Assembly (NCBI GenBank): GCA_017514105.1
Contig: JAFWKY010000007.1
Coordinates: forward strand, 1-37,193
Source: Candidatus Saccharimonadota bacterium
Lineage (GTDB): Bacteria; Patescibacteriota; Saccharimonadia; Saccharimonadales; Saccharimonadaceae
Length of the DNA: 37,193 bases
Direction: 5' to 3'
Below the pieces are notes generated by a model. It saw nothing but the letters and a program-made list of their open reading frames with translations, did not search any database and was not told the origin of the DNA. Made by a program: the position numbers and the translations under genes. Position 1 is the stretch's first letter. The number at the start of each line of letters is the position of its first letter. Positions 1 through 8,855 of the stretch are shown here, piece by piece.

Positions 1-42
1 GTATTGATTGTCAAGGCATCCACTATCAGTGCCCTTAATTAC
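1..42 (-). rRNA. 23S rRNA, 5' end only (gene runs out of the window)
   Basis: On the minus strand the sequence contains GTGGATGCCTTGACA preceded by GGTAATTAAGGGCACTGA. This matches the conserved 5' end of bacterial 23S rRNA (the GGTGGATGCCTTGGCA region). The mature 5' end is placed near 42 by analogy with E. coli. The bulk of the gene lies beyond the left edge. Upstream, at higher coordinates, there is no 16S rRNA or tRNA before the AbiEii-like gene at 383, and a dedicated promoter is present, so this 23S appears to be transcribed apart from 16S. Confidence 0.88.
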
Positions 43-243
43 CTTTTTATGCATTGACATAACTAGCAATCGAAGTTCGATTGCGATGCTACGTCTTTAA
101 AATCTTTTCATCGTTAATCTCAAATTGTTAATCGGAGAGTCTTCAAGAATTGGTCTGAGTCGTTAAAAGCGGCCTCAAATTAATTCCTCGCTTTCCTATC
201 TTTCTGTAGAGGTCGCAAAGGCGACTTGCTTTAACTGTTACCC
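43..243 (-). other. 23S rRNA leader (pre-rRNA 5' spacer)
   Basis: This is the roughly 195-nt region between the predicted start (about 237) and the 23S 5' end. It contains no ORF or tRNA. A perfect 8-bp inverted repeat, GCAATCGA (66-73) with TCGATTGC (77-84) around a 3-nt loop, lies close to the 23S end. A second short hairpin (GTCGC/GCGAC around a 4-nt loop, near 212-225) lies near the start. Such stems are usual in rRNA leaders as processing or antitermination structures, but no specific box A was identified. Confidence 0.6.
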
Positions 244-272
244 ATTATATCGCACATTTCCGGGCATGTCAA
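244..272 (-). promoter_or_regulatory. Consensus sigma70-type promoter of the 23S unit
   Basis: On the minus strand, -35 TTGACA (267-272), a 17-bp spacer and -10 TATAAT (244-249) match the consensus at all 12 positions. The predicted start is near 237, about 195 nt upstream of the 23S 5' end. A promoter of this strength fits stable-RNA transcription. Confidence 0.88.
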
Positions 273-351
273 CACCTTTTTTGGACTTTTTTTGAGTTTT
301 TTGTGCATTTTGCATCTCCACAACTCCCTACGGAGGTGCGCACTGTTACTT

Positions 352-378
352 GTTACGAAAACTCGGAGTTTTCGTAAC
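352..378. repeat. 27-bp palindrome, copy 1 (left flank of the AbiE module)
   Basis: Two 13-bp arms, GTTACGAAAACTC (352-364) and its exact reverse complement (366-378), surround a single G at 365. The exact reverse complement of the whole 27-mer is found at 2081-2107, on the other side of the toxin-antitoxin pair. There is no T-tract on the minus strand after it, so it is not a typical intrinsic terminator although it lies just downstream of the AbiEii-like stop codon. Confidence 0.85.
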
Positions 379-382
379 AGCT

Positions 383-1408
383 CTATCCCAATTCGTTTAT
401 TTCTTTCTCAAGTTTCGCCATTTCATCAGTTATCATATTAAAATCTGGATATTCGCCATAAAACATCGACTGCATCGCATCGTAGTCTTTGCGCAAGACC
501 TCTTCATTGTCCGCAGACGGCACAAGCCTCAATGTCCCCGGCTTAGCCATATCATATCTCGCCCAGCCTGCATGATAAAACTTATCTTTGAACTCAGCAA
601 CATCCCTCAACAACTGTATATTATCCAACGCCGACTTCTTGAACGGTGATTTCGCCATACAATACATATCGTAGTAATGTCTAGAATATCTTTGCGGGGT
701 ACGATTCCCGTCCGGTCTGTGTGCCTCAGCGTGTAAGATTGTTGCTTTCTCCCAAAAACTTCTCTCCGCAGTAGTTGTCAAGATAACCGTTCCTACCTCC
801 ACAAAAAGATCGGAATAACATTCTGCTACATACGGCGTGATTAATGCGTTTTGAGTTGGTGTCCAGGCTGCAAGAGGGCCAATTTCCAGACGAATAGCCG
901 GCGTCAACGCAAAATCTCTGAAAATACTTGGATAGTGAAACAGTACAGTCAGCTCACCATTTTCTTCATACAAAGAAAACTTGCTACTTTTTGGCAAAAT
1001 ACCACCGATATCTTCCGAAATCTTTGGAATAAAGTCATCTGCCAAAAATTTCCTAAACTTCTCCGCACATTCAGCTTTAAATTTCTCCCGTTGATTATTA
1101 CTAGATAATCCCAATGGATAATCCTTTGCATATCCCAAGACTCGCCAATCCAAAATTAGATCAACATCCTCAGAAAATCTCTTAATCAGATGATATGCTT
1201 TCGAAAGGCTCGTCCCGCCCTTGAATGCCAAATGATCTCTCCACGGGCTTTCATGAAAAAGATAGTCCAGAATAAAACAAACCCAAAAATCTTTTTCTAC
1301 AATCCCCTCAGACATCCCAATTTTTGCGGCGGTATTACGAAACAACGCTTCGCGATCTTTAGCTGATAATCTAGCAACTTTACGCATCGTTTTTGTCACG
1401 ACTCCCAT
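383..1408 (-). CDS. AbiEii/AbiGii-type nucleotidyltransferase toxin
   Basis: The 341-residue product belongs to the nucleotidyltransferase AbiEii/AbiGii toxin family, the toxin half of AbiE-type (type IV) toxin-antitoxin and abortive-infection systems. The diagnostic region is FKGGTSLSKAYHLIKRFSED at about residues 62-81, giving the GG(S/T) nucleotide-binding loop, followed by the D81/D83 acidic pair. A later segment, RSFWEKATILHAEAHRP near residue 220, is also typical. Related toxins transfer nucleotides, probably to tRNA; the target here is unknown. The gene overlaps the upstream AbiEi-like gene by 29 bp, so the pair is translationally coupled. Neither candidate start (ATG at 1408 or at 1387) has a clear Shine-Dalgarno. 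The catalytic residues appear intact. Confidence 0.88.
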   Translation of the reverse strand: MGVVTKTMRKVARLSAKDREALFRNTAAKIGMSEGIVEKDFWVCFILDYLFHESPWRDHLAFKGGTSLSKAYHLIKRFSEDVDLILDWRVLGYAKDYPLGLSSNNQREKFKAECAEKFRKFLADDFIPKISEDIGGILPKSSKFSLYEENGELTVLFHYPSIFRDFALTPAIRLEIGPLAAWTPTQNALITPYVAECYSDLFVEVGTVILTTTAERSFWEKATILHAEAHRPDGNRTPQRYSRHYYDMYCMAKSPFKKSALDNIQLLRDVAEFKDKFYHAGWARYDMAKPGTLRLVPSADNEEVLRKDYDAMQSMFYGEYPDFNMITDEMAKLEKEINELG

Positions 1409-2027
1409 TCACGGCATCTACCGACGCAATTTCCTTGAGACAATTATAAATCCAAAGCGGCAAGTTATTCCCCTCTGCTAGCATTTTTTCACGCTCCGCT
1501 TGGTCAAAATGCGCCGCAAAGTTCGCAATCATTTCTTCTGTAATGCGCTCTTGCCCTATAGCACGCAGGGCCTGCACTGCCATAATAGTCTTCGGAGAAA
1601 GCGCAGCGAATTCGCGGTCTTCTCTATGAGTGAAAATGAGTTTTGCGTTTTTTAATTCATATTCTCTAGATGGCCCAGAACTGATAAATTCCCAGGTATT
1701 AGGAACCTGCGTAGAAATCCCCAAATAGTTTAATGCAGTTTCGCCACTTGGCGCAATCATCCAGCCATTTTTCTCAGCAAGGGCTTTGGCAACCTTTTGC
1801 GGATTTGGCTCGACCAACTCACCCAACATAGAATTATAAACAGGCTTTTCGTAAACACCTCTGACCATTCTGCGTATTAGTCCAGATGATTCCAAGCGTG
1901 CCAGAATTGCCTTTATTGAATCGTAATCACCGAGATCCAAAAATTTTTGGATATAAAAAATCTCACCCTCCGGATACGAGTTAATTCTGTCCATAATCTT
2001 TTTCGTAATATCTGTATTTTCTTGCAT
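1380..2027 (-). CDS. AbiEi-like antitoxin (DUF6088-type)
   Basis: The 215-residue product is the likely antitoxin partner. An N-terminal winged-helix-like region (about residues 1-70) is followed by a conserved block containing PNPQKVAKALAEKNGWMIAP and TALNYLGLSTQ-like sequence, typical of DUF6088 proteins paired with AbiEii toxins. The start at 2027 is chosen because AAGGA lies at 2034-2038, 6 nt upstream. An ATG at 2054 abuts the -10 box and cannot be used from that promoter. Antitoxins of this type usually repress their own operon; the palindrome at 2081-2107 overlaps the expected -35 position and is a natural operator candidate. The assignment to the family is from remembered motifs. Confidence 0.82.
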   Translation of the reverse strand: MQENTDITKKIMDRINSYPEGEIFYIQKFLDLGDYDSIKAILARLESSGLIRRMVRGVYEKPVYNSMLGELVEPNPQKVAKALAEKNGWMIAPSGETALNYLGISTQVPNTWEFISSGPSREYELKNAKLIFTHREDREFAALSPKTIMAVQALRAIGQERITEEMIANFAAHFDQAEREKMLAEGNNLPLWIYNCLKEIASVDAVNGSRDKNDA

Positions 2028-2054
2028 AATTAATCCTTTTGTATGACTAAACAT

Positions 2055-2060
2055 ATTATA
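2055..2060 (-). promoter_or_regulatory. Extended -10 promoter of the AbiE pair
   Basis: TATAAT at 2055-2060 (minus strand) is preceded by TGT, an extended -10. The expected -35 position (2078-2083) reads AACACT and is poor; it overlaps the edge of the palindrome at 2081-2107. The predicted start is near 2048, leaving a leader of about 20 nt that contains the Shine-Dalgarno. Confidence 0.6.
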
Positions 2061-2080
2061 ACATATTTTTTAACATAAGT

Positions 2081-2107
2081 GTTACGAAAACTCCGAGTTT
2101 TCGTAAC
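2081..2107. repeat. 27-bp palindrome, copy 2 (right flank, upstream of the AbiE promoter)
   Basis: Arms GTTACGAAAACTC (2081-2093) and its reverse complement (2095-2107) flank a single C at 2094. The 27-mer is the exact reverse complement of copy 1 at 352-378. It lies between the AbiE promoter and the terminator of the neighbouring surface-protein gene. It could be a mobility or recombination end, or an AbiEi operator. Confidence 0.85.
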
Positions 2108-2125
2108 AAATTCGAAAACAAAACC

Positions 2126-2156
2126 AGAAATACCGCTCTATTGGAGCGGTATTTCT
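2126..2156 (-). terminator. Intrinsic terminator of the DUF916-like gene
   Basis: A perfect 13-bp stem, AGAAATACCGCTC (2126-2138) with its complement at 2144-2156, surrounds a 5-nt loop. On the minus strand it is followed by GGTTTTGTTTTC. It lies 45 bp beyond the stop codon at 2202. Confidence 0.78.
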
Positions 2157-2201
2157 GCTACATTATCTTATGCGCAACTATTTCTTGCTTTGCCTCAATC
2201 A

Positions 2202-3185
2202 TTACGCGGCCGCAGCATCCTGTGCTCTCTTATTCTTTCCACGGCTTCGCGCACGCATCACGATCCAGATAATAATCGCAATGATGACGAAGAAGATCAA
2301 GAATAGTAACCATACCGGACAAACGATCACCAATTTTTCCGTCACGCTCGGTTCAGTATCGGTTGAATCATAATATACAGTCTGTCGCACTCTAAATATC
2401 CCCACCGCAGGAGTCTTGTCCCAAGTCTGAGTAATCATGCGCGTTGCTCCAGGCAACACATAACTTGACCCCATATCTTCCTCAGTAGTATAAACTTCTT
2501 CGTCAGAAAATAGCGGGAATACTTGCATGTTATAACTTATCTTTGCATGCGTATTTCCTTCATTTTTTACCACAAATGAGGTGGTAATCGGTGGCGTCAA
2601 CACAAATGATTGAATATTGTTATCCATAATCTCGCCTTTCACCACGATATCACCTGACACTTCTACGTAGACCAACGAAACTATCCCTAGTACTTCCCTA
2701 ATGGCCACGGTATCATCACTACTTGCTTTCTGTGTTGCTTCTGCATCCGTTTTTACTCGCACGCCGAAGTATTGTCCTCCTCCCCTTGCATCCTTCGGTA
2801 CCGTAATTGTATAATACGCCTTTCCTTTCTCCCCTGGTTTTAATACTCCGTGCACTTCTTCCGCCGCCGATTCGTCATCATCCGATATCGTCACCCAGTT
2901 TATAATATCCGTATAATCATTCTCGGCGTCAAAACTCGGCGAGTATTTTCCGTCATCACTTACCGAAAATGGTACTGCTTCCACAATGTAGTAGAAATCT
3001 CCTTCCGCATCACTCGGATTAAATGCGCTCACTTCCCCAGTCACCGACTGCCCAGGTGTCAACACATATTCCTGATCCTGTGGCGACACCGTAAAAGCCG
3101 ACACGCTAGCACAAGGAGCCAACGCACTCACTAACATCATCATGGTGCCAACTAAACTAACCAATATATTTTTATTTTTTGCCAT
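2202..3185 (-). CDS. Membrane-anchored surface protein, DUF916-like
   Basis: The 327-residue product has a Sec signal peptide (residues 1-30), an exported beta-rich body, and a C-terminal transmembrane helix (about 291-312) followed by a basic tail, giving a type I topology. The body starts with a segment like the DUF916/WxL-interacting fold: a PGQSVTGEV turn, NPSDAEGDFYY, INWVTI, then LKPGEKGKAYYTITVPKDARGGGQYFGV. In Firmicutes such proteins bind peptidoglycan or partner WxL proteins. No WxL partner was recognised here, so the role on this cell surface is unknown. Start: AAAGGAGG lies 5 nt upstream of the ATG, behind a TATAAT at 3211-3216. A hairpin terminator follows at 2126-2156. Confidence 0.75.
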   Translation of the reverse strand: MAKNKNILVSLVGTMMMLVSALAPCASVSAFTVSPQDQEYVLTPGQSVTGEVSAFNPSDAEGDFYYIVEAVPFSVSDDGKYSPSFDAENDYTDIINWVTISDDDESAAEEVHGVLKPGEKGKAYYTITVPKDARGGGQYFGVRVKTDAEATQKASSDDTVAIREVLGIVSLVYVEVSGDIVVKGEIMDNNIQSFVLTPPITTSFVVKNEGNTHAKISYNMQVFPLFSDEEVYTTEEDMGSSYVLPGATRMITQTWDKTPAVGIFRVRQTVYYDSTDTEPSVTEKLVIVCPVWLLFLIFFVIIAIIIWIVMRARSRGKNKRAQDAAAA

Positions 3186-3219
3186 TAATACCTCCTTTAT
3201 ATTACTCTATATTATACAC

Positions 3220-3786
3220 TTAATCAGATATTTCGCAAGAGAAACCTTTAGCTTCGTACTGTTTTTTTAGCCCATCTAGCGACTTTACTACATTCGTCCC
3301 CCGATCCAAGAGAAAATACTCTACTGTATTTTCATTTATTCTGCCTATATCTCGTGTCGTTTGCACGAATTGCATCTTCGTCCCATCAACGGAAAAATTA
3401 GACGAAAATATCTCTATATCCTCACCATACCTTTTGATCAAAACATCGTTGTAGTCTGACCTAGCATAAGTCTCCGCCGACTCCGCATTCTTTGCCGTTC
3501 CGTAATCTCCTTCGTATAACAGGGAAATAGACGACAGCTTATCGTCGCGAAAATTCGCCGTTATTGTATTCGCATAAGAGTTCGCTTGCACGCTGGTAAG
3601 CGCAGGATGCAAAGATGTTGCACTTTTACATACTATTCCTGTCACCTTTGCCTCGCCGCCAATTTTTACATCTCCGGTCGCCTCACCTCTCATCGCATTT
3701 ATTATTACTACTACAATCAGTACTACTGCAACTAGCACAAGCGCTAATCCTATCCATAACTGATTCTTTCCGTTATTTTTACTCAA
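3220..3786 (-). CDS. Hypothetical membrane-anchored extracytoplasmic protein
   Basis: The 188-residue protein is not assigned to a family. It has one N-terminal transmembrane helix (about residues 10-32) and a soluble extracellular domain with two cysteines, one early (GIVCKS) and one near the C terminus (FSCEISD), possibly a disulfide. The TTG start at 3786 is preferred because GGAGG lies just before it. An in-frame ATG at 3816 overlaps the -10 box (TGC-TATAAT, 3805-3810). It is followed within 35 bp by the DUF916-like gene, so the two may be co-transcribed, although the latter has its own -10. Confidence 0.65.
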   Translation of the reverse strand: MSKNNGKNQLWIGLALVLVAVVLIVVVIINAMRGEATGDVKIGGEAKVTGIVCKSATSLHPALTSVQANSYANTITANFRDDKLSSISLLYEGDYGTAKNAESAETYARSDYNDVLIKRYGEDIEIFSSNFSVDGTKMQFVQTTRDIGRINENTVEYFLLDRGTNVVKSLDGLKKQYEAKGFSCEISD

Positions 3787-3804
3787 TTTACCTCCTTTCC
3801 TACC

Positions 3805-3810
3805 ATTATA
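3805..3810 (-). promoter_or_regulatory. Extended -10 promoter of the 3220-3786 gene
   Basis: TATAAT on the minus strand is preceded by TGC, with no clear -35. It is nested directly behind the terminator hairpin at 3817-3842 of the upstream surface-protein gene. The predicted start near 3798 leaves a short leader that is nearly all Shine-Dalgarno (AAAGGAGG). Confidence 0.6.
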
Positions 3811-3816
3811 GCACAA

Positions 3817-3842
3817 AAATCCTCCCGTCTCCGGGAGGATTT
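3817..3842 (-). terminator. Intrinsic terminator of the 3861-4481 gene
   Basis: A perfect 11-bp stem, AAATCCTCCCG (3817-3827) with its complement at 3832-3842, surrounds a 4-nt loop. On the minus strand it runs into TTTTTGTGC, 19 bp after the stop codon. Confidence 0.85.
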
Positions 3843-3860
3843 ACCCGAACTAATCTATAA

Positions 3861-4481
3861 TTAGTTAGTTGCTAACAAGTTATAGGTAATCGTACCTTGG
3901 TAGTTACCAGCCTTGGTCTCAGAACCAATCTTAGCGGTGTAAGTTGCCTTCCAAGCATCACCAGCAGTTGCGGTAGTGCTGTTGCTTCTAGTAATAATAG
4001 TACCAGTAGCGGTACCAGCCGAAGTGCCCTCCGTTGCACTATCAGGCAACTGAGCAGCCGTAATACCGCTAGTTATGGTCTCAATCGCAGCATGCCATCC
4101 ACTTGTAGTGGTAAGACCGGACAAATCAGCCAAGTATACAAACTTGTCAGAAATCGCTGGGCTTGCGTTGTCAATGTTAGCCAAATCTTGCGCAGTAGCA
4201 GTTACGGTATAACCTTTGTTATTGTTGCAGAATACATTAAATGTGTGAACATTCGTTCCAGAATCACCACTGGTTGATGGATTGACAGTTTCACCATTTG
4301 CACCAGTAGCGGTATAAGTACCATCAAGCGTACCAGTACCAGAAGCCCTAAAAGTACAAGAAGGGCTAACAGTTACCTTAATGGTATCCTGCACATCAAT
4401 GTCATCAGCAGCAAACACGCCAACTACTGGCATGGCTGCGAGAGCTACTGAAGCTACACCTGCGATTAAAGCTTTTTTCAT
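3861..4481 (-). CDS. Secreted two-cysteine surface protein (paralogue of 5623-6669)
   Basis: The 206-residue protein has a signal peptide ending near VFAADD (residue 26) and no C-terminal anchor, so it is probably secreted or assembled on the surface. It shares DTIKVTV-PSCTFR, then F-V/L-FCNNN-GY-VTAT, and a closing T-IG/VGSET-AG-Y-GTI-Y-L block with the protein at 5623-6669. The two cysteines (about C42 and C85) are conserved between them and could form a disulfide. The family is not recognised; pilin-like or surface-layer roles are guesses. Strong expression is likely: a TTGACA/17/TAAAAT promoter, a 72-nt leader with GGAAGGAG, and a strong terminator. Confidence 0.75.
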   Translation of the reverse strand: MKKALIAGVASVALAAMPVVGVFAADDIDVQDTIKVTVSPSCTFRASGTGTLDGTYTATGANGETVNPSTSGDSGTNVHTFNVFCNNNKGYTVTATAQDLANIDNASPAISDKFVYLADLSGLTTTSGWHAAIETITSGITAAQLPDSATEGTSAGTATGTIITRSNSTTATAGDAWKATYTAKIGSETKAGNYQGTITYNLLATN

Positions 4482-4559
4482 AATTATTATTCTCCTTCCA
4501 CCAAATGTGGAAAATTATTTTGTATTTTGTGTTAAATGTAATGACCTTTAACATTTCTT

Positions 4560-4588
4560 ATTTTACATAACCAGAATGACTTTGTCAA
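4560..4588 (-). promoter_or_regulatory. Strong promoter of the secreted-protein gene 3861-4481
   Basis: On the minus strand, -35 TTGACA (4583-4588), a 17-bp spacer and -10 TAAAAT (4560-4565) are present. The predicted start is near 4553, giving a 5' leader of about 72 nt. This is long for this window and includes a small inverted repeat (CCACATTTGGTGG, near 4498-4510) just before the Shine-Dalgarno. Confidence 0.75.
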
Positions 4589-4664
4589 CAAATATTTTAA
4601 TGATTTTTTAAGTTTTTTATTTCGGTTTTCCACAAGCCGACAGATATGCTATAATGACAAAAGT

Positions 4665-5366
4665 ATGAGAATACAATTACAAAAGAGGTTAAACATTTTT
4701 GCCGACGAAACTGGAGAATTCGGCTTTACGAAGGGATCTGCTAGATTCTACGGCGTCTCTTTTGTTTTTCATGAACAGGACGACAGTATTTCTAAGTATG
4801 TAAACGAACTAAACGTCCGTCTCGGATTGCTCGATTTTTATTCAATGGTGCATATGGGCGATCTCGTTTCTGGTCATGAAGACTTCGCCGGAATGGATAT
4901 TGCAGAAAGACGGCGTATATACACCCAACTATACAGATTTTCTACAAAAGTTCCGGCAAAATATCATTCCGTGATAATTGACAAAAAGGCTTTCAACGAC
5001 GATACTTTGCTTAGCGAAGCGATTGAACGTGAGTTGCAAAAGTTTGTTCTGGATCATCTGGCATACTTACAGCAATTTGACGAGATAAAAGTATATTATG
5101 ATGGTGGTCAGAAGCAACTAGGTAAAATTATAGACGAAGTATTTAGTAAGTTATCGGGTTATCATCGAGAAAGCAACTTTGACCATCTTGAAAAGAAATT
5201 ATTTCAAGTGGCAGATATGTTAACATATACGGATAAGCTGATCTATAAGTATAATAAGAATATCAAGTTCTCAAATACAGAAAAGGGATTTTTTGACGTA
5301 AAGACAATTATACGGATAAAGCGGGAACTTAAAAAACATCGGTTCGAACAAAATAACGGCCATTAA
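4665..5366 (+). CDS. DUF3800 domain protein
   Basis: The 233-residue product resembles DUF3800, a family with an RNase H-like fold. The N terminus (NIFADETGEFGF) carries the acidic D-E pair, VYYDGG (about residue 145) a further aspartate, and FQVADMLTYTDKLIY the C-terminal aspartate motif. Function is unknown; DUF3800 genes often occur in accessory or defence-associated regions. An extended -10 (TGC-TATAAT, 4650-4655) ends 9 nt before the ATG, so the mRNA would be nearly leaderless. The stop codon lies inside the loop of a hairpin (5350-5378). It sits in opposite orientation between two paralogous surface-protein genes, suggesting later insertion. Confidence 0.72.
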   Translation: MRIQLQKRLNIFADETGEFGFTKGSARFYGVSFVFHEQDDSISKYVNELNVRLGLLDFYSMVHMGDLVSGHEDFAGMDIAERRRIYTQLYRFSTKVPAKYHSVIIDKKAFNDDTLLSEAIERELQKFVLDHLAYLQQFDEIKVYYDGGQKQLGKIIDEVFSKLSGYHRESNFDHLEKKLFQVADMLTYTDKLIYKYNKNIKFSNTEKGFFDVKTIIRIKRELKKHRFEQNNGH

Positions 5367-5468
5367 GACCGTTATTTTGGCGGTGCATTCGCACCAACTC
5401 GAGGCGAATCGGAGCCACTGAAAGCAGCGGACGACTCTAGGGGTATCTTCTATAGACAATACCCTGTA
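5348..5468 (-). ncRNA. Candidate structured small RNA (about 120 nt)
   Basis: No convincing ORF explains this stretch, but a minus-strand promoter (5475-5502), several stems and a terminator are arranged as in a small-RNA gene. Stem 1: GGGTAT/ATACCC (5459-5464 with 5441-5446). Stem 2: GAGTCG/CGATTC (5432-5437 with 5406-5411, one G-U) enclosing CCGCTG/CAGTGG (5425-5430 with 5415-5420, one G-U that exists only in the minus-strand RNA). Stem 3: GGTGC/GCACC (5391-5395 with 5382-5386) around GAAT. An alternative ATTCGC/GCGAAT pairing could compete with stems 2 and 3. The RNA would overlap the 3' end of the DUF3800 gene in antisense. It matches no RNA family known to me; 4.5S, 6S and tRNA were considered and rejected. 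Confidence 0.45.
5350..5378. terminator. Bidirectional hairpin terminator
   Basis: AAAATAACGG (5350-5359) pairs perfectly with CCGTTATTTT (5369-5378). The stop codon of the DUF3800 gene lies in the loop. U-rich sequence follows in both directions (TTTTGG on plus, TTTTGTTC on minus), so it can end both the DUF3800 mRNA and the candidate minus-strand RNA. Confidence 0.65.
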
Positions 5469-5474
5469 TATATT

Positions 5475-5502
5475 ATTATACAAAAGTTTTAATATTTTTC
5501 AA
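5475..5502 (-). promoter_or_regulatory. Promoter of the candidate small RNA
   Basis: On the minus strand, -35 TTGAAA (5497-5502), a 16-bp spacer and -10 TATAAT (5475-5480) are present. The predicted start is near 5468. No protein gene follows on the minus strand before the hairpin terminator. Confidence 0.6.
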
Positions 5503-5571
5503 GAGTTTTTTGACATTATAATTACGTATAGATGTAGCCGTCGAATATAAGAATTTTTACTAAGGCAAGAC

Positions 5572-5604
5572 AAAAAAACTAAGCGTTTCACCGCCTAGTT
5601 TTTT
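5572..5604 (-). terminator. Intrinsic terminator of the 5623-6669 gene
   Basis: On the minus strand, CTAGGCG pairs with CGCTTAG (one G-U) around a 6-nt loop, followed by seven T. It begins 19 bp after the stop codon at 5623. Confidence 0.82.
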
Positions 5605-5622
5605 GCTCAGTAGTTTCGGTTT

Positions 5623-6669
5623 CTACTTTTCTTCTTCTTTCTTATCCTTCGCCAATGCGACTACTGCCACGCCAGCCACAGCCAATGCTCCAGCCGCTAC
5701 CAATATAGGCATCAGATCTGTTCCAGAATCCTTGTTCGATGTCATCGCACTGGTGGTTACGCCAAGTGGTTTCTCATAACTACTACTTGACCCAGAATTA
5801 CTGTTGCTCGCAACGGCATCATTTGCGCTTGTAGAGCTGCCCGTGCTTCCACTTGCAGCAAGCTGCGTACCTGTCGCAACTGGCGTGCTATTCCCGTTAG
5901 CGTAATTAGTTGTATTGTGGGTGTTATAAGTGTTGTAAGTATTGTTAAAAACCGTCGGCGTAGTATTTTGCGCGTCATTTGACGAATTGCTAGAGTTGCC
6001 AGAATCAGTACCGCTGTTTTCGCTACCATTGCCGTTGTCGTCATTTTGATTAGTGCCGCCCGAACCAGAGCTAGAACCGCCATTGTTCGACGTTCCTGAC
6101 GCAGTCAGAGTGTAAATAATTGTTCCCGTGTAAGTTCCTGCCGGTGTTTCAGAACCAACGTAGGCTTTATAGGTCGCAGTAAAACTAGCGCCTGCAGCAG
6201 TTGTACTCGAATCAGACGAGATAACCGTTCCGCCGCCAACTGGCACTGGACTTACCGCAGTCACTCCTACCGTTTCCGTCGCAATCTCGGCCGTCCACAT
6301 ACTGTTCACTCCAGTATGCGTATAATTATCCGTATAGGCAATCACGTCACCTGCACCTGTCATTTCCAAATCATACGGCGTCGCCGTCACGATATAACCA
6401 TTATTATTGTTACAGAAAAGATTAAACTCGTGTACGCCAGAATCGTTAAAGTTATCTACTTCAGTTCCGTTTGCTGCCGAACCGACATAAGTTTTATCTT
6501 CTGTGCTTCTAAAAGTACAACTCGGCTGCACAGTTACTTTAATCGTATCAGTAACCGACGTTACATCTGCTGCCGAAACTCCGTCCGACAACACCCCAAT
6601 CCCAACTACGCCAAGCCCAGCAGCCACTGCTACTGCACACGCCTTGCTGCGCAAGTTTGTTTCTTTCAT
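5623..6669 (-). CDS. Surface protein: two-cysteine domain, Ser/Asn stalk, C-terminal anchor
   Basis: The 348-residue protein has a signal peptide (about residues 1-34) and an N-terminal domain homologous to the secreted protein at 3861-4481 (cysteines C51 and C86 in PSCTFR and LFCNNNNGY, ending TGTIIYTLTAS). A long Ser/Gly/Asn/Thr-rich stalk follows (about 190-310, with short NTYNTYNTHNTTNY-type repeats). A C-terminal transmembrane helix (about 319-341) with a charged cytoplasmic tail completes it. No LPxTG sortase motif is present. It may be the membrane-tethered form of the secreted paralogue. A weak promoter (TTGCGT/17/TATCAT, 6711-6739) and an AAGGAAGG Shine-Dalgarno precede the ATG. Confidence 0.78.
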   Translation of the reverse strand: MKETNLRSKACAVAVAAGLGVVGIGVLSDGVSAADVTSVTDTIKVTVQPSCTFRSTEDKTYVGSAANGTEVDNFNDSGVHEFNLFCNNNNGYIVTATPYDLEMTGAGDVIAYTDNYTHTGVNSMWTAEIATETVGVTAVSPVPVGGGTVISSDSSTTAAGASFTATYKAYVGSETPAGTYTGTIIYTLTASGTSNNGGSSSGSGGTNQNDDNGNGSENSGTDSGNSSNSSNDAQNTTPTVFNNTYNTYNTHNTTNYANGNSTPVATGTQLAASGSTGSSTSANDAVASNSNSGSSSSYEKPLGVTTSAMTSNKDSGTDLMPILVAAGALAVAGVAVVALAKDKKEEEK

Positions 6670-6710
6670 TTTTGTATTACCTTCCTTAATGTATGACCTT
6701 ATATACTTAC

Positions 6711-8024: not shown

Positions 8025-8750
8025 TTATATACCAAGTGCCGGCTCGTTTGGACAATTTTCCAAAATTCGCAAAATCGCCTCTTTCTCGGCCTCTGTCACC
8101 CACAGGCTGTATTTGTATTTTACAGATACTTGTCTCGCCACATACTGACAACGAAATCTCTTGTTCGGCGGCAGCCAAGTCGCCGCATCACCATCAGATT
8201 TCTTTTCGTTCGCAGCGGCATCCACCGCCAAGAGGTTCAATGGGTCAGTTGCTATCTTGTATCGCACTCCCGGCTCCATATATTGTGCACCCTTCTGCCA
8301 AGCGTCAGACAACGCCACTACGTGATCTATTTGTATTCCCTTAGATATATCCTCTCGCTTTGCAAAAACCTTGTGCTCCCCTGTATATGGCTCATCATAT
8401 TCACCAGAAAGCACATTACAACCGTCCAACACCGCACTATCGCCAAATTCTCTCTTGATAATGCGTTGCCGCAAATTACAACCTTCCACCGTTGGCCAGC
8501 CACTATAGAACTCGTCTCTCTTGTATCCAGTTTTTGGCGCACGCCCCTTCACTTCCAACTTTTCCAAAATATCTCTCGCCAGAGGCGCATCCACATCCTT
8601 CTCGCTCACCGCTATGGCGCTATAATCTTCCTCGCTATTTTCCGCCGACGTATAAATTCGCTCATAACTCGCTGGATTACAAATCACCCACACCGCCACC
8701 CCGACAAGTGCCACGATTACTGCAAACAACCTCCGTTTTTTTAGTTTCAT
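8025..8750 (-). CDS. Secreted or anchored HNH nuclease (DUF1524, GmrSD C-terminal type)
   Basis: The 241-residue protein has an N-terminal hydrophobic signal or anchor (about residues 7-24), so it acts outside the membrane. The nuclease core shows IQIDHVVALSDAWQKGAQ (D142, H143), TDPLNLLAVDAAANEKKSDG and DAATWLPPNKRFRCQYVARQ, a His-Me/HNH layout typical of secreted DUF1524 nucleases of Actinobacteria and Saccharibacteria. Two cysteine pairs may form disulfides. Likely role: degrading external DNA or RNA for nucleotide salvage, since relatives lack nucleotide synthesis (family knowledge). The start at 8750 is fixed by TGC-TATAAT ending 6 nt upstream (leaderless). It heads a probable operon with the rhodanese-like and thioredoxin-like genes. 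Confidence 0.83.
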   Translation of the reverse strand: MKLKKRRLFAVIVALVGVAVWVICNPASYERIYTSAENSEEDYSAIAVSEKDVDAPLARDILEKLEVKGRAPKTGYKRDEFYSGWPTVEGCNLRQRIIKREFGDSAVLDGCNVLSGEYDEPYTGEHKVFAKREDISKGIQIDHVVALSDAWQKGAQYMEPGVRYKIATDPLNLLAVDAAANEKKSDGDAATWLPPNKRFRCQYVARQVSVKYKYSLWVTEAEKEAILRILENCPNEPALGI

Positions 8751-8756
8751 ACCAAC

Positions 8757-8762
8757 ATTATA
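8757..8762 (-). promoter_or_regulatory. Leaderless extended -10 promoter of the HNH nuclease
   Basis: TGC-TATAAT on the minus strand is followed by 6 nt and then ATG (8750), so the predicted +1 is the A of the start codon. No -35 is evident. It is divergent from the plus-strand promoter at 8773-8801. Confidence 0.7.
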
Positions 8763-8772
8763 GCATGTAGAC

Positions 8773-8801
8773 TTGATTTTTCTCGCGAAATGCGGTAAAA
8801 T
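8773..8801 (+). promoter_or_regulatory. Promoter of the 8856-9299 gene
   Basis: TTGATT (8773-8778), a 17-bp spacer and TAAAAT (8796-8801) lie on the plus strand. The predicted start is near 8808, giving a leader of about 48 nt with AAGGGGGTG before the ATG. Confidence 0.68.
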
Positions 8802-8855
8802 ATCATGGTGTCTTTTTAAATTGCACAAGCATTTATTAACTAAGGGGGTGAAAAA

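What the first reader, a model, noticed from the sequence alone, without database searches (positions are those of the whole stretch)
5341..5505. Possible new small RNA, antisense to the end of the DUF3800 gene
A promoter (TTGAAA/16/TATAAT), three hairpins and a bidirectional terminator define a 120-nt minus-strand unit with no credible ORF. In stem 2, base pairs include G-U positions that exist only in the minus-strand RNA, which supports that strand. Alternative pairing between ATTCGC and GCGAAT (5387-5392, 5404-5409) would allow switching. It may regulate the DUF3800 mRNA or be independent.
Basis: partly seen in the sequence, partly recalled or inferred. Interest (0 to 1): 0.58.

Follow-up and report, generated by a model that had tools for sequence, protein, structure and literature searches.

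The report
New RNA partner of DUF3800 nuclease
This stretch encodes a small folded RNA that travels with a neighbouring nuclease-like gene across two unrelated groups of gut bacteria, which suggests that RNA and protein work as a pair rather than the RNA merely silencing that gene.

Summary

The antisense idea fails. Relatives in three other Saccharibacteria and in gut Bacilli sit beside the same clade of DUF3800 gene, usually convergent behind it, sometimes upstream without overlap (L003, L155). Of 55 loci found by protein alone, 48 carry the RNA, one has a weak upstream match, five end at the contig edge, one distant protein lacks it. Found by RNA alone in one order, 26 of 36 copies have a DUF3800 neighbour. 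Other DUF3800 genes of the genus carry Rfam's DUF3800-XI RNA instead; RNA class follows protein clade. The protein models as RNase H-like.

Best reading: a new class of DUF3800-associated RNA, the dedicated partner of an RNase H-like nuclease, probably holding it in check or licensing it. The mechanism is inferred.

The parts
5497..5502 (-). -35 box TTGAAA of the RNA promoter
   Evidence: position conserved in relatives
5475..5480 (-). -10 box TATAAT of the RNA promoter, ending 7 nt before the modelled RNA start
5441..5464 (-). Hairpin P1 (GGGUAUU..GAUACCC); one A-U to G-C double change between relatives
5406..5437 (-). Hairpin P2 (GAGUCG..CGAUUC with inner CCGCUG..CAGUGG); G-U to G-C change in L003
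5382..5395 (-). Hairpin P3 (GGUGC GAAU GCACC); three of five pairs with double changes; the part best conserved in Bacilli
5349..5379 (-). 13-bp hairpin flanked by A and T runs: terminator of the RNA and probably of the DUF3800 mRNA
   Evidence: sequence, fold
5345..5468 (-). Whole small RNA, about 120 nt; ends approximate (no transcript data)
4665..5366 (+). DUF3800 protein, 233 aa, RNase H-like fold; Pfam PF12686 just under the cut-off here (18.5 of 21 bits), over it in three of the four relatives tested
4627..4655 (+). Probable promoter of the DUF3800 gene (TTTCCA/17/TATAAT)
   Evidence: consensus match only

Best explanation
5345-5470 (minus strand) encodes a free-standing structured small RNA of about 120 nt that is the dedicated partner of the RNase H-fold DUF3800 protein encoded next to it. 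Shown by comparison: the RNA is conserved in structure, has its own promoter and terminator signals, and is inherited with one clade of DUF3800 proteins in Saccharibacteria and gut Bacilli, whatever its strand and side relative to the gene. Inferred: the DUF3800 protein binds this RNA, and the RNA sets the nuclease's state, most likely by holding it inactive or licensing it, in a two-part RNA-plus-nuclease module of the toxin-antitoxin or defence sort.
For: Structure and covariation: 4 sequences, 100% of 79 cells paired, 4 pairs with double changes; 35 sequences, 97.4% of 694 cells, 6 pairs with double changes. Pairing with the protein: starting from the protein, 48 of 55 loci have the RNA (45 by R2, 3 by R1), 1 has a weak upstream match (L028), 5 have a contig that ends within about 116 nt of the match, 1 distant protein (L068, 32%) lacks it. 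Before any Bacilli model existed, R1 built from 4 Saccharibacteria hit 14 Bacilli-type loci, all at the same spot behind the gene on the opposite strand (E 0.0012 to 0.35 each). Starting from the RNA: 26 of 36 copies in 288 genomes have a full or partial DUF3800 neighbour; among the 20 copies in genomes not already chosen by protein, 11 of 20. G249 has four copies, each beside its own full or partial DUF3800. RNA class follows protein clade: the five DUF3800-XI carriers in the tree form one side of a branch with 100/100 support. RNA and protein distances correlate in 31 loci (r 0.64, 0 of 2000 permutations). Protein: AF2 pLDDT 89.5, best Foldseek matches RNase HII/H2; D14, E15 and D146 in 50 of 51 and D184 in 51 of 51 rows. 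Setting: AbiE genes lie 2.6 kb away.
Against: No transcript, no binding and no activity data. 10 of 36 RNA copies have no DUF3800 nearby; several look decayed (L141, L144, L147), so they may be relics, but L137 looks intact. Fold matches are weak (no Foldseek E at or under 0.001; best VIA Z 7.8, within the range that unrelated models can reach), enough to suggest the RNase H-like class but not an activity. Flanks of 25 Bacilli loci are largely housekeeping with only scattered defence hits (94 proteins), so a defence role is not shown by context. The Bacilli and Saccharibacteria RNAs cross-match only weakly by model score; their homology rests on position, architecture and the P3 segment.
Confidence: 0.55

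Rival explanations
1. The RNA is a positive cofactor or guide: DUF3800 is a nuclease that uses it to recognise or cut invading nucleic acid, as in other RNA-guided RNase H-fold effectors.
For: Near-obligate pairing; RNase H-like fold with Argonaute PIWI domains among the matches; DUF3800 proteins sit in CRISPR loci (PMC10910872 and PMC12669027, passages only; G027 Cas9 locus).
Against: No guide-like stretch that varies in sequence at fixed length: the variable apical part of P2 changes in length and largely pairs with itself. No array and no sign of spacer uptake at this locus.
Confidence: 0.27
2. The RNA is a cis-antisense or trans-acting regulator of the DUF3800 mRNA.
For: In the window, L002 and L004 it is convergent with the gene and shares the terminator region. 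In L004 pairing with the start region was matched by only 7 of 200 shuffles.
Against: Overlap is confined to a self-complementary terminator; upstream placement without overlap in L003, L155, L117 and probably L028; no significant pairing with the start region in 3 of 4 genomes.
Confidence: 0.07
3. The RNA unit is the recognised end of a small mobile or excisable cassette, and DUF3800 (an RNase H-like fold, as in integrases) or a neighbouring tyrosine recombinase moves it.
For: DUF3800 flanked by direct repeats of the RNA unit: L039 240 nt at 96%, L048, L051; tandem copies in L052 and L055. Orphan RNAs. Different gene neighbours in the Saccharibacteria copies; phage-type integrase beside two of four.
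Against: One copy per genome in most cases; no target-site duplication or empty site was examined; promoter and stem conservation point to a transcribed RNA. Repeats could equally arise by tandem duplication.
Confidence: 0.09
4. It is only a strong two-way terminator with chance hairpins.
For: A terminator-like hairpin is present.
Against: P1-P3, promoter spacing and sequence are conserved across phyla with double changes.
Confidence: 0.02

Closest known systems
DUF3800-XI RNA (Rfam RF02975) and the other Rfam DUF3800 RNA motifs
   Same: Small structured RNA encoded directly beside a DUF3800 gene; found in the same genus at other DUF3800 genes and on one viral contig.
   Different: No match to any Rfam DUF3800 family at E up to 10; about 120 nt and three hairpins plus terminator against a 48-position model; usually convergent behind the gene, where XI lies just upstream on the same strand; separate protein clade.
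Type III toxin-antitoxin systems (ToxIN and kin; features recalled)
   Same: A nuclease-like protein paired with a small structured RNA gene of its own; protein rarely without the RNA, RNA sometimes alone.
   Different: Single RNA copy instead of tandem repeats, separate promoter, usually opposite strand, RNase H-like fold rather than the ToxN fold.
RNase HII / RNase H2 (cellular)
   Same: Closest solved folds; a DE pair near the N-terminus and later conserved aspartates (the RNase HII active site is recalled).
   Different: No sequence match in the PDB below E 1; obligate RNA neighbour.
TPR-DUF3800 proteins of Cas12a2 and other CRISPR loci (PMC10910872, PMC12669027; passages read)
   Same: Same Pfam family, described there as RNase H fold and as linked to putative ncRNAs.
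   Different: No CRISPR-cas gene named by the scans of the window proteins tested; no Pfam TPR match in this 233-aa protein.

Membership tests
DUF3800-associated structured RNAs (as a kind) | Conserved RNA structure with covariation | tested here: met
DUF3800-associated structured RNAs (as a kind) | Consistently adjacent to DUF3800 genes | tested here: met
   48 of 55 loci; of the other 7, one weak match, five contig ends, one distant protein without it; RNA-first 26 of 36
An existing Rfam DUF3800 family (e.g. RF02975) | Score over the family's gathering cut-off | tested here: not met
   window; relatives
DUF3800 protein family (PF12686) | Pfam score over cut-off | tested here: inconclusive
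   Window protein 18.5 of 21 bits, just under; relatives L034 23.7, L028 23.5 and L053 28.8 over, L020 20.3 under; family membership is clear through the relatives
RNase H-like fold | Fold match to RNase H superfamily structures | tested here: met
   Foldseek E 1.3e-3 to RNase HII, VIA Z 7.8 over 161 residues; weak, but RNase H-like proteins fill the top of both lists
RNase H-like nuclease | Metal-dependent cleavage by conserved acidic residues | not testable with these tools
   Acidic residues conserved; activity unknown
Type III toxin-antitoxin | Tandem-repeat RNA antitoxin upstream of the toxin on the same strand | tested here: not met
   single RNA, opposite strand
Type III toxin-antitoxin | RNA binds and neutralises a toxic protein | not testable with these tools
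   needs experiment
cis-antisense RNA | Conserved overlap with the target mRNA | tested here: not met
   L003, L155, L117 without overlap

The most novel reading that the evidence does not exclude
DUF3800 proteins are a broad, undescribed class of RNA-dependent RNase H-fold nucleases, each clade with its own small RNA partner; this one is spread between phyla in animal guts as a compact RNA-nuclease cassette that uses its RNA to recognise or license its target, and may even move by way of the repeated RNA unit.
Probability: 0.2. Interest if true: 0.88.

Novelty: new member of a known kind. Interest (0 to 1): 0.55.

Why it matters
DUF3800 RNAs are listed in Rfam, and I found no stated function for them in the passages read. 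This case gives a clean, compact pair (one 233-aa RNase H-fold protein, one 120-nt RNA), shows that the RNA follows the protein and not the gene's layout, and shows that different DUF3800 clades in one genus carry different RNAs. That makes the question 'does DUF3800 bind its neighbour RNA, and what for?' directly testable.

Tried and rejected
Rfam, at gathering and at E up to 10, on the window region and on a Bacilli relative: only chance hits. DNA search in relatives: 8 of the 12 matching genomes, plus extra places in G000 and G026, matched only short stretches; their letters, where printed, look like AT-rich promoter matches, and none was used. R1 hit in G040 (L074, 28 bits) has no DUF3800 in its flanks and was dropped. 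Antisense pairing with the DUF3800 start region: not significant in three of four genomes, 7 of 200 shuffles in L004. Alternative pairing. Defence neighbourhood: AbiE genes in the window, but 94 flanking proteins of 25 Bacilli loci (of 114 entries listed) gave only scattered defence hits. PADLOC has no match for five of these DUF3800 proteins at E up to 10. No relative in the PDB by sequence below E 1. R1 in the wider order: only the window genome of 294; filters were stricter and the other known carriers were not among the rows listed. R2 in the class: 6 of 346 genomes. Literature: searches for DUF3800, candidate structured RNAs and Saccharibacteria small RNAs gave no account of this RNA; the 2017 paper that I recall as the source of the DUF3800 motifs is not held, so its text was not seen. 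Supplements were not searched.

Full report
What is there. On the minus strand between about 5468 and 5345 lies a compact transcription unit: promoter TTGAAA/16/TATAAT, hairpins P1, P2 and P3, and a 13-bp hairpin flanked by A and T runs that could end transcription from both sides. The minus strand folds at -51.7 kcal/mol with z -6.4 (0 of 200 shuffles as good), the plus strand with z -3.9. It has no Rfam match.

Relatives in the same genus. A DNA search of 99 genomes gave three real relatives beside the window's own copy (G007, G019, G059). A covariance model of these four (R1) found them again and one weak, dropped hit in 174 genomes of the genus. In the four, all 79 countable cells of the proposed stems are standard pairs and four pairs show changes on both sides; sliding the partners by one to three columns drops pairing to 27-51%. 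In all four the RNA is next to a DUF3800 gene, but not in one layout: convergent behind the gene in the window, L002 and L004; upstream and divergent in L003.

Across phyla. A protein search with the four DUF3800 proteins brought 55 loci, four from Saccharibacteria and nearly all others from gut Bacilli and their kin, mostly 39-49% identical to the query. R1, which had seen no Bacilli sequence, placed its new minus-strand hits (14 loci, E 0.0012 to 0.35) at one spot only, some 40 nt behind the DUF3800 gene on the opposite strand; two further weak hits on the plus strand of L015 and the window overlap or adjoin the RNA's own 5' part and were ignored. Reading that spot shows a clear RNA family there: promoter, AU-rich P1, P2, the invariant AAACCCG stretch, P3 and terminator. 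In 35 of these, 97.4% of 694 cells pair and six pairs have double changes. A second model, R2, was built from them. Counting both models, 48 of the 55 loci carry the RNA; L028 has a weak upstream match; L046, L058, L062, L065 and L067 end within about 116 nt of the match; L068, a distant protein, has none. R2 was built from many of these loci, so this count describes the set and is not an independent test.

The independent test. R2 was run on 288 genomes of one order without regard to the protein: 36 copies in 34 genomes. After fetching the four copies without a locus, 26 of 36 have a full or partial DUF3800 within the fetched flanks, 24 of them convergent and two (L117, L155) upstream; of the 20 copies in genomes not already picked by protein, 11 have one. 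The other nine of those 20, and L121, are orphans; L137 looks intact, while L141, L144 and L147 look decayed. In whole genomes the RNA is mostly single-copy (41 of 46 genomes hit, 49 matches; the misses include the Saccharibacteria, whose RNAs R2 barely sees), and the genome with four copies has a full or partial DUF3800 beside each.

Not antisense. The overlap with the DUF3800 gene is only the terminator region, which is complementary to itself. L003, L155 and the first copy in L048 (L117) sit upstream without overlap; L028/L128 probably does too, on the same strand. Predicted pairing with the DUF3800 start region is no better than shuffles in three of four genomes.

The kind it belongs to. 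Five other DUF3800 genes of the same genus carry Rfam's DUF3800-XI RNA directly upstream, four over the cut-off and one just under it, and so does a DUF3800 gene on a viral contig. This is a built-in positive control: Rfam finds its DUF3800 RNAs here, and ours is not one of them. In a tree of 59 proteins, the five XI carriers in it and L129 fall on one side of a branch with 100/100 support and all proteins with our RNA on the other. RNA and protein distances agree in 31 Bacilli loci (r 0.64). So the RNA class follows the protein clade.

The protein. The AF2 model is good (pLDDT 89.5) and its best matches are RNase HII and H2, followed among others by PIWI domains, Prp8 and integrase cores, all weak. 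D14, E15, H63, D146, D184 and others are near-invariant in 51 proteins. That RNase HII also uses a DE pair and two later aspartates is recalled, not tested. PMC10910872 (passages) describes DUF3800 as an RNase H fold with a catalytic rearrangement and as linked to putative ncRNAs.

How it probably works. In this clade the protein is almost never without the RNA, the RNA is sometimes without the protein, the layout does not matter, and another protein clade has another RNA. That is what a protein-RNA pair looks like. I favour an RNA that restrains or licenses a nuclease (toxin-antitoxin or defence sort), with an RNA cofactor or guide as the main rival; the sequence data do not decide between them. 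The direct repeats of the RNA unit around DUF3800 in L039 (240 nt, 96%), L048 and L051, and tandem copies in L052 and L055, leave room for a mobile cassette.

Noticed in passing
L158 (G027:C3) 27-6672: A Saccharibacteria Cas9 locus with cas1 and csn2 has a DUF3800 gene between csn2 and the CRISPR array (repeats spaced 66 nt), with its own structured-looking stretch upstream of DUF3800.
   Followed up: partly
window 383-2054: AbiEii and AbiEi-like genes (type IV toxin-antitoxin / abortive infection) about 2.6 kb from the DUF3800 gene.
   Followed up: partly
window 8025-8828: Protein with a GmrSD C-terminal (restriction endonuclease) domain.
   Followed up: no
window 3861-4481 and 5623-6669: Two secreted-looking proteins with similar stretches flank the DUF3800-RNA pair; similar-looking proteins lie beside it in G007 and G059; no Pfam match for those scanned.
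   Followed up: no
L159 5297-6145 and L160 3964-4815: Phage-type integrase genes directly beside the DUF3800-RNA pair in two of four Saccharibacteria.
   Followed up: partly
L039 2686-2925 and 3668-3907; also L048, L051: DUF3800 flanked by direct repeats of the RNA unit.
   Followed up: partly
L137, L140, L141, L143: Orphan RNAs beside HipA-like (L137), Fic-like (weak; L141, and L140 by likeness) and DUF4143 ATPase (L143) genes.
   Followed up: partly
L157 1925-2612: A viral contig carries a DUF3800 gene with a DUF3800-XI RNA upstream.
   Followed up: no
L020 1390-2652: A gene beside one Bacilli DUF3800 locus matches Pfam's ADP-ribosyltransferase exoenzyme family.
   Followed up: no
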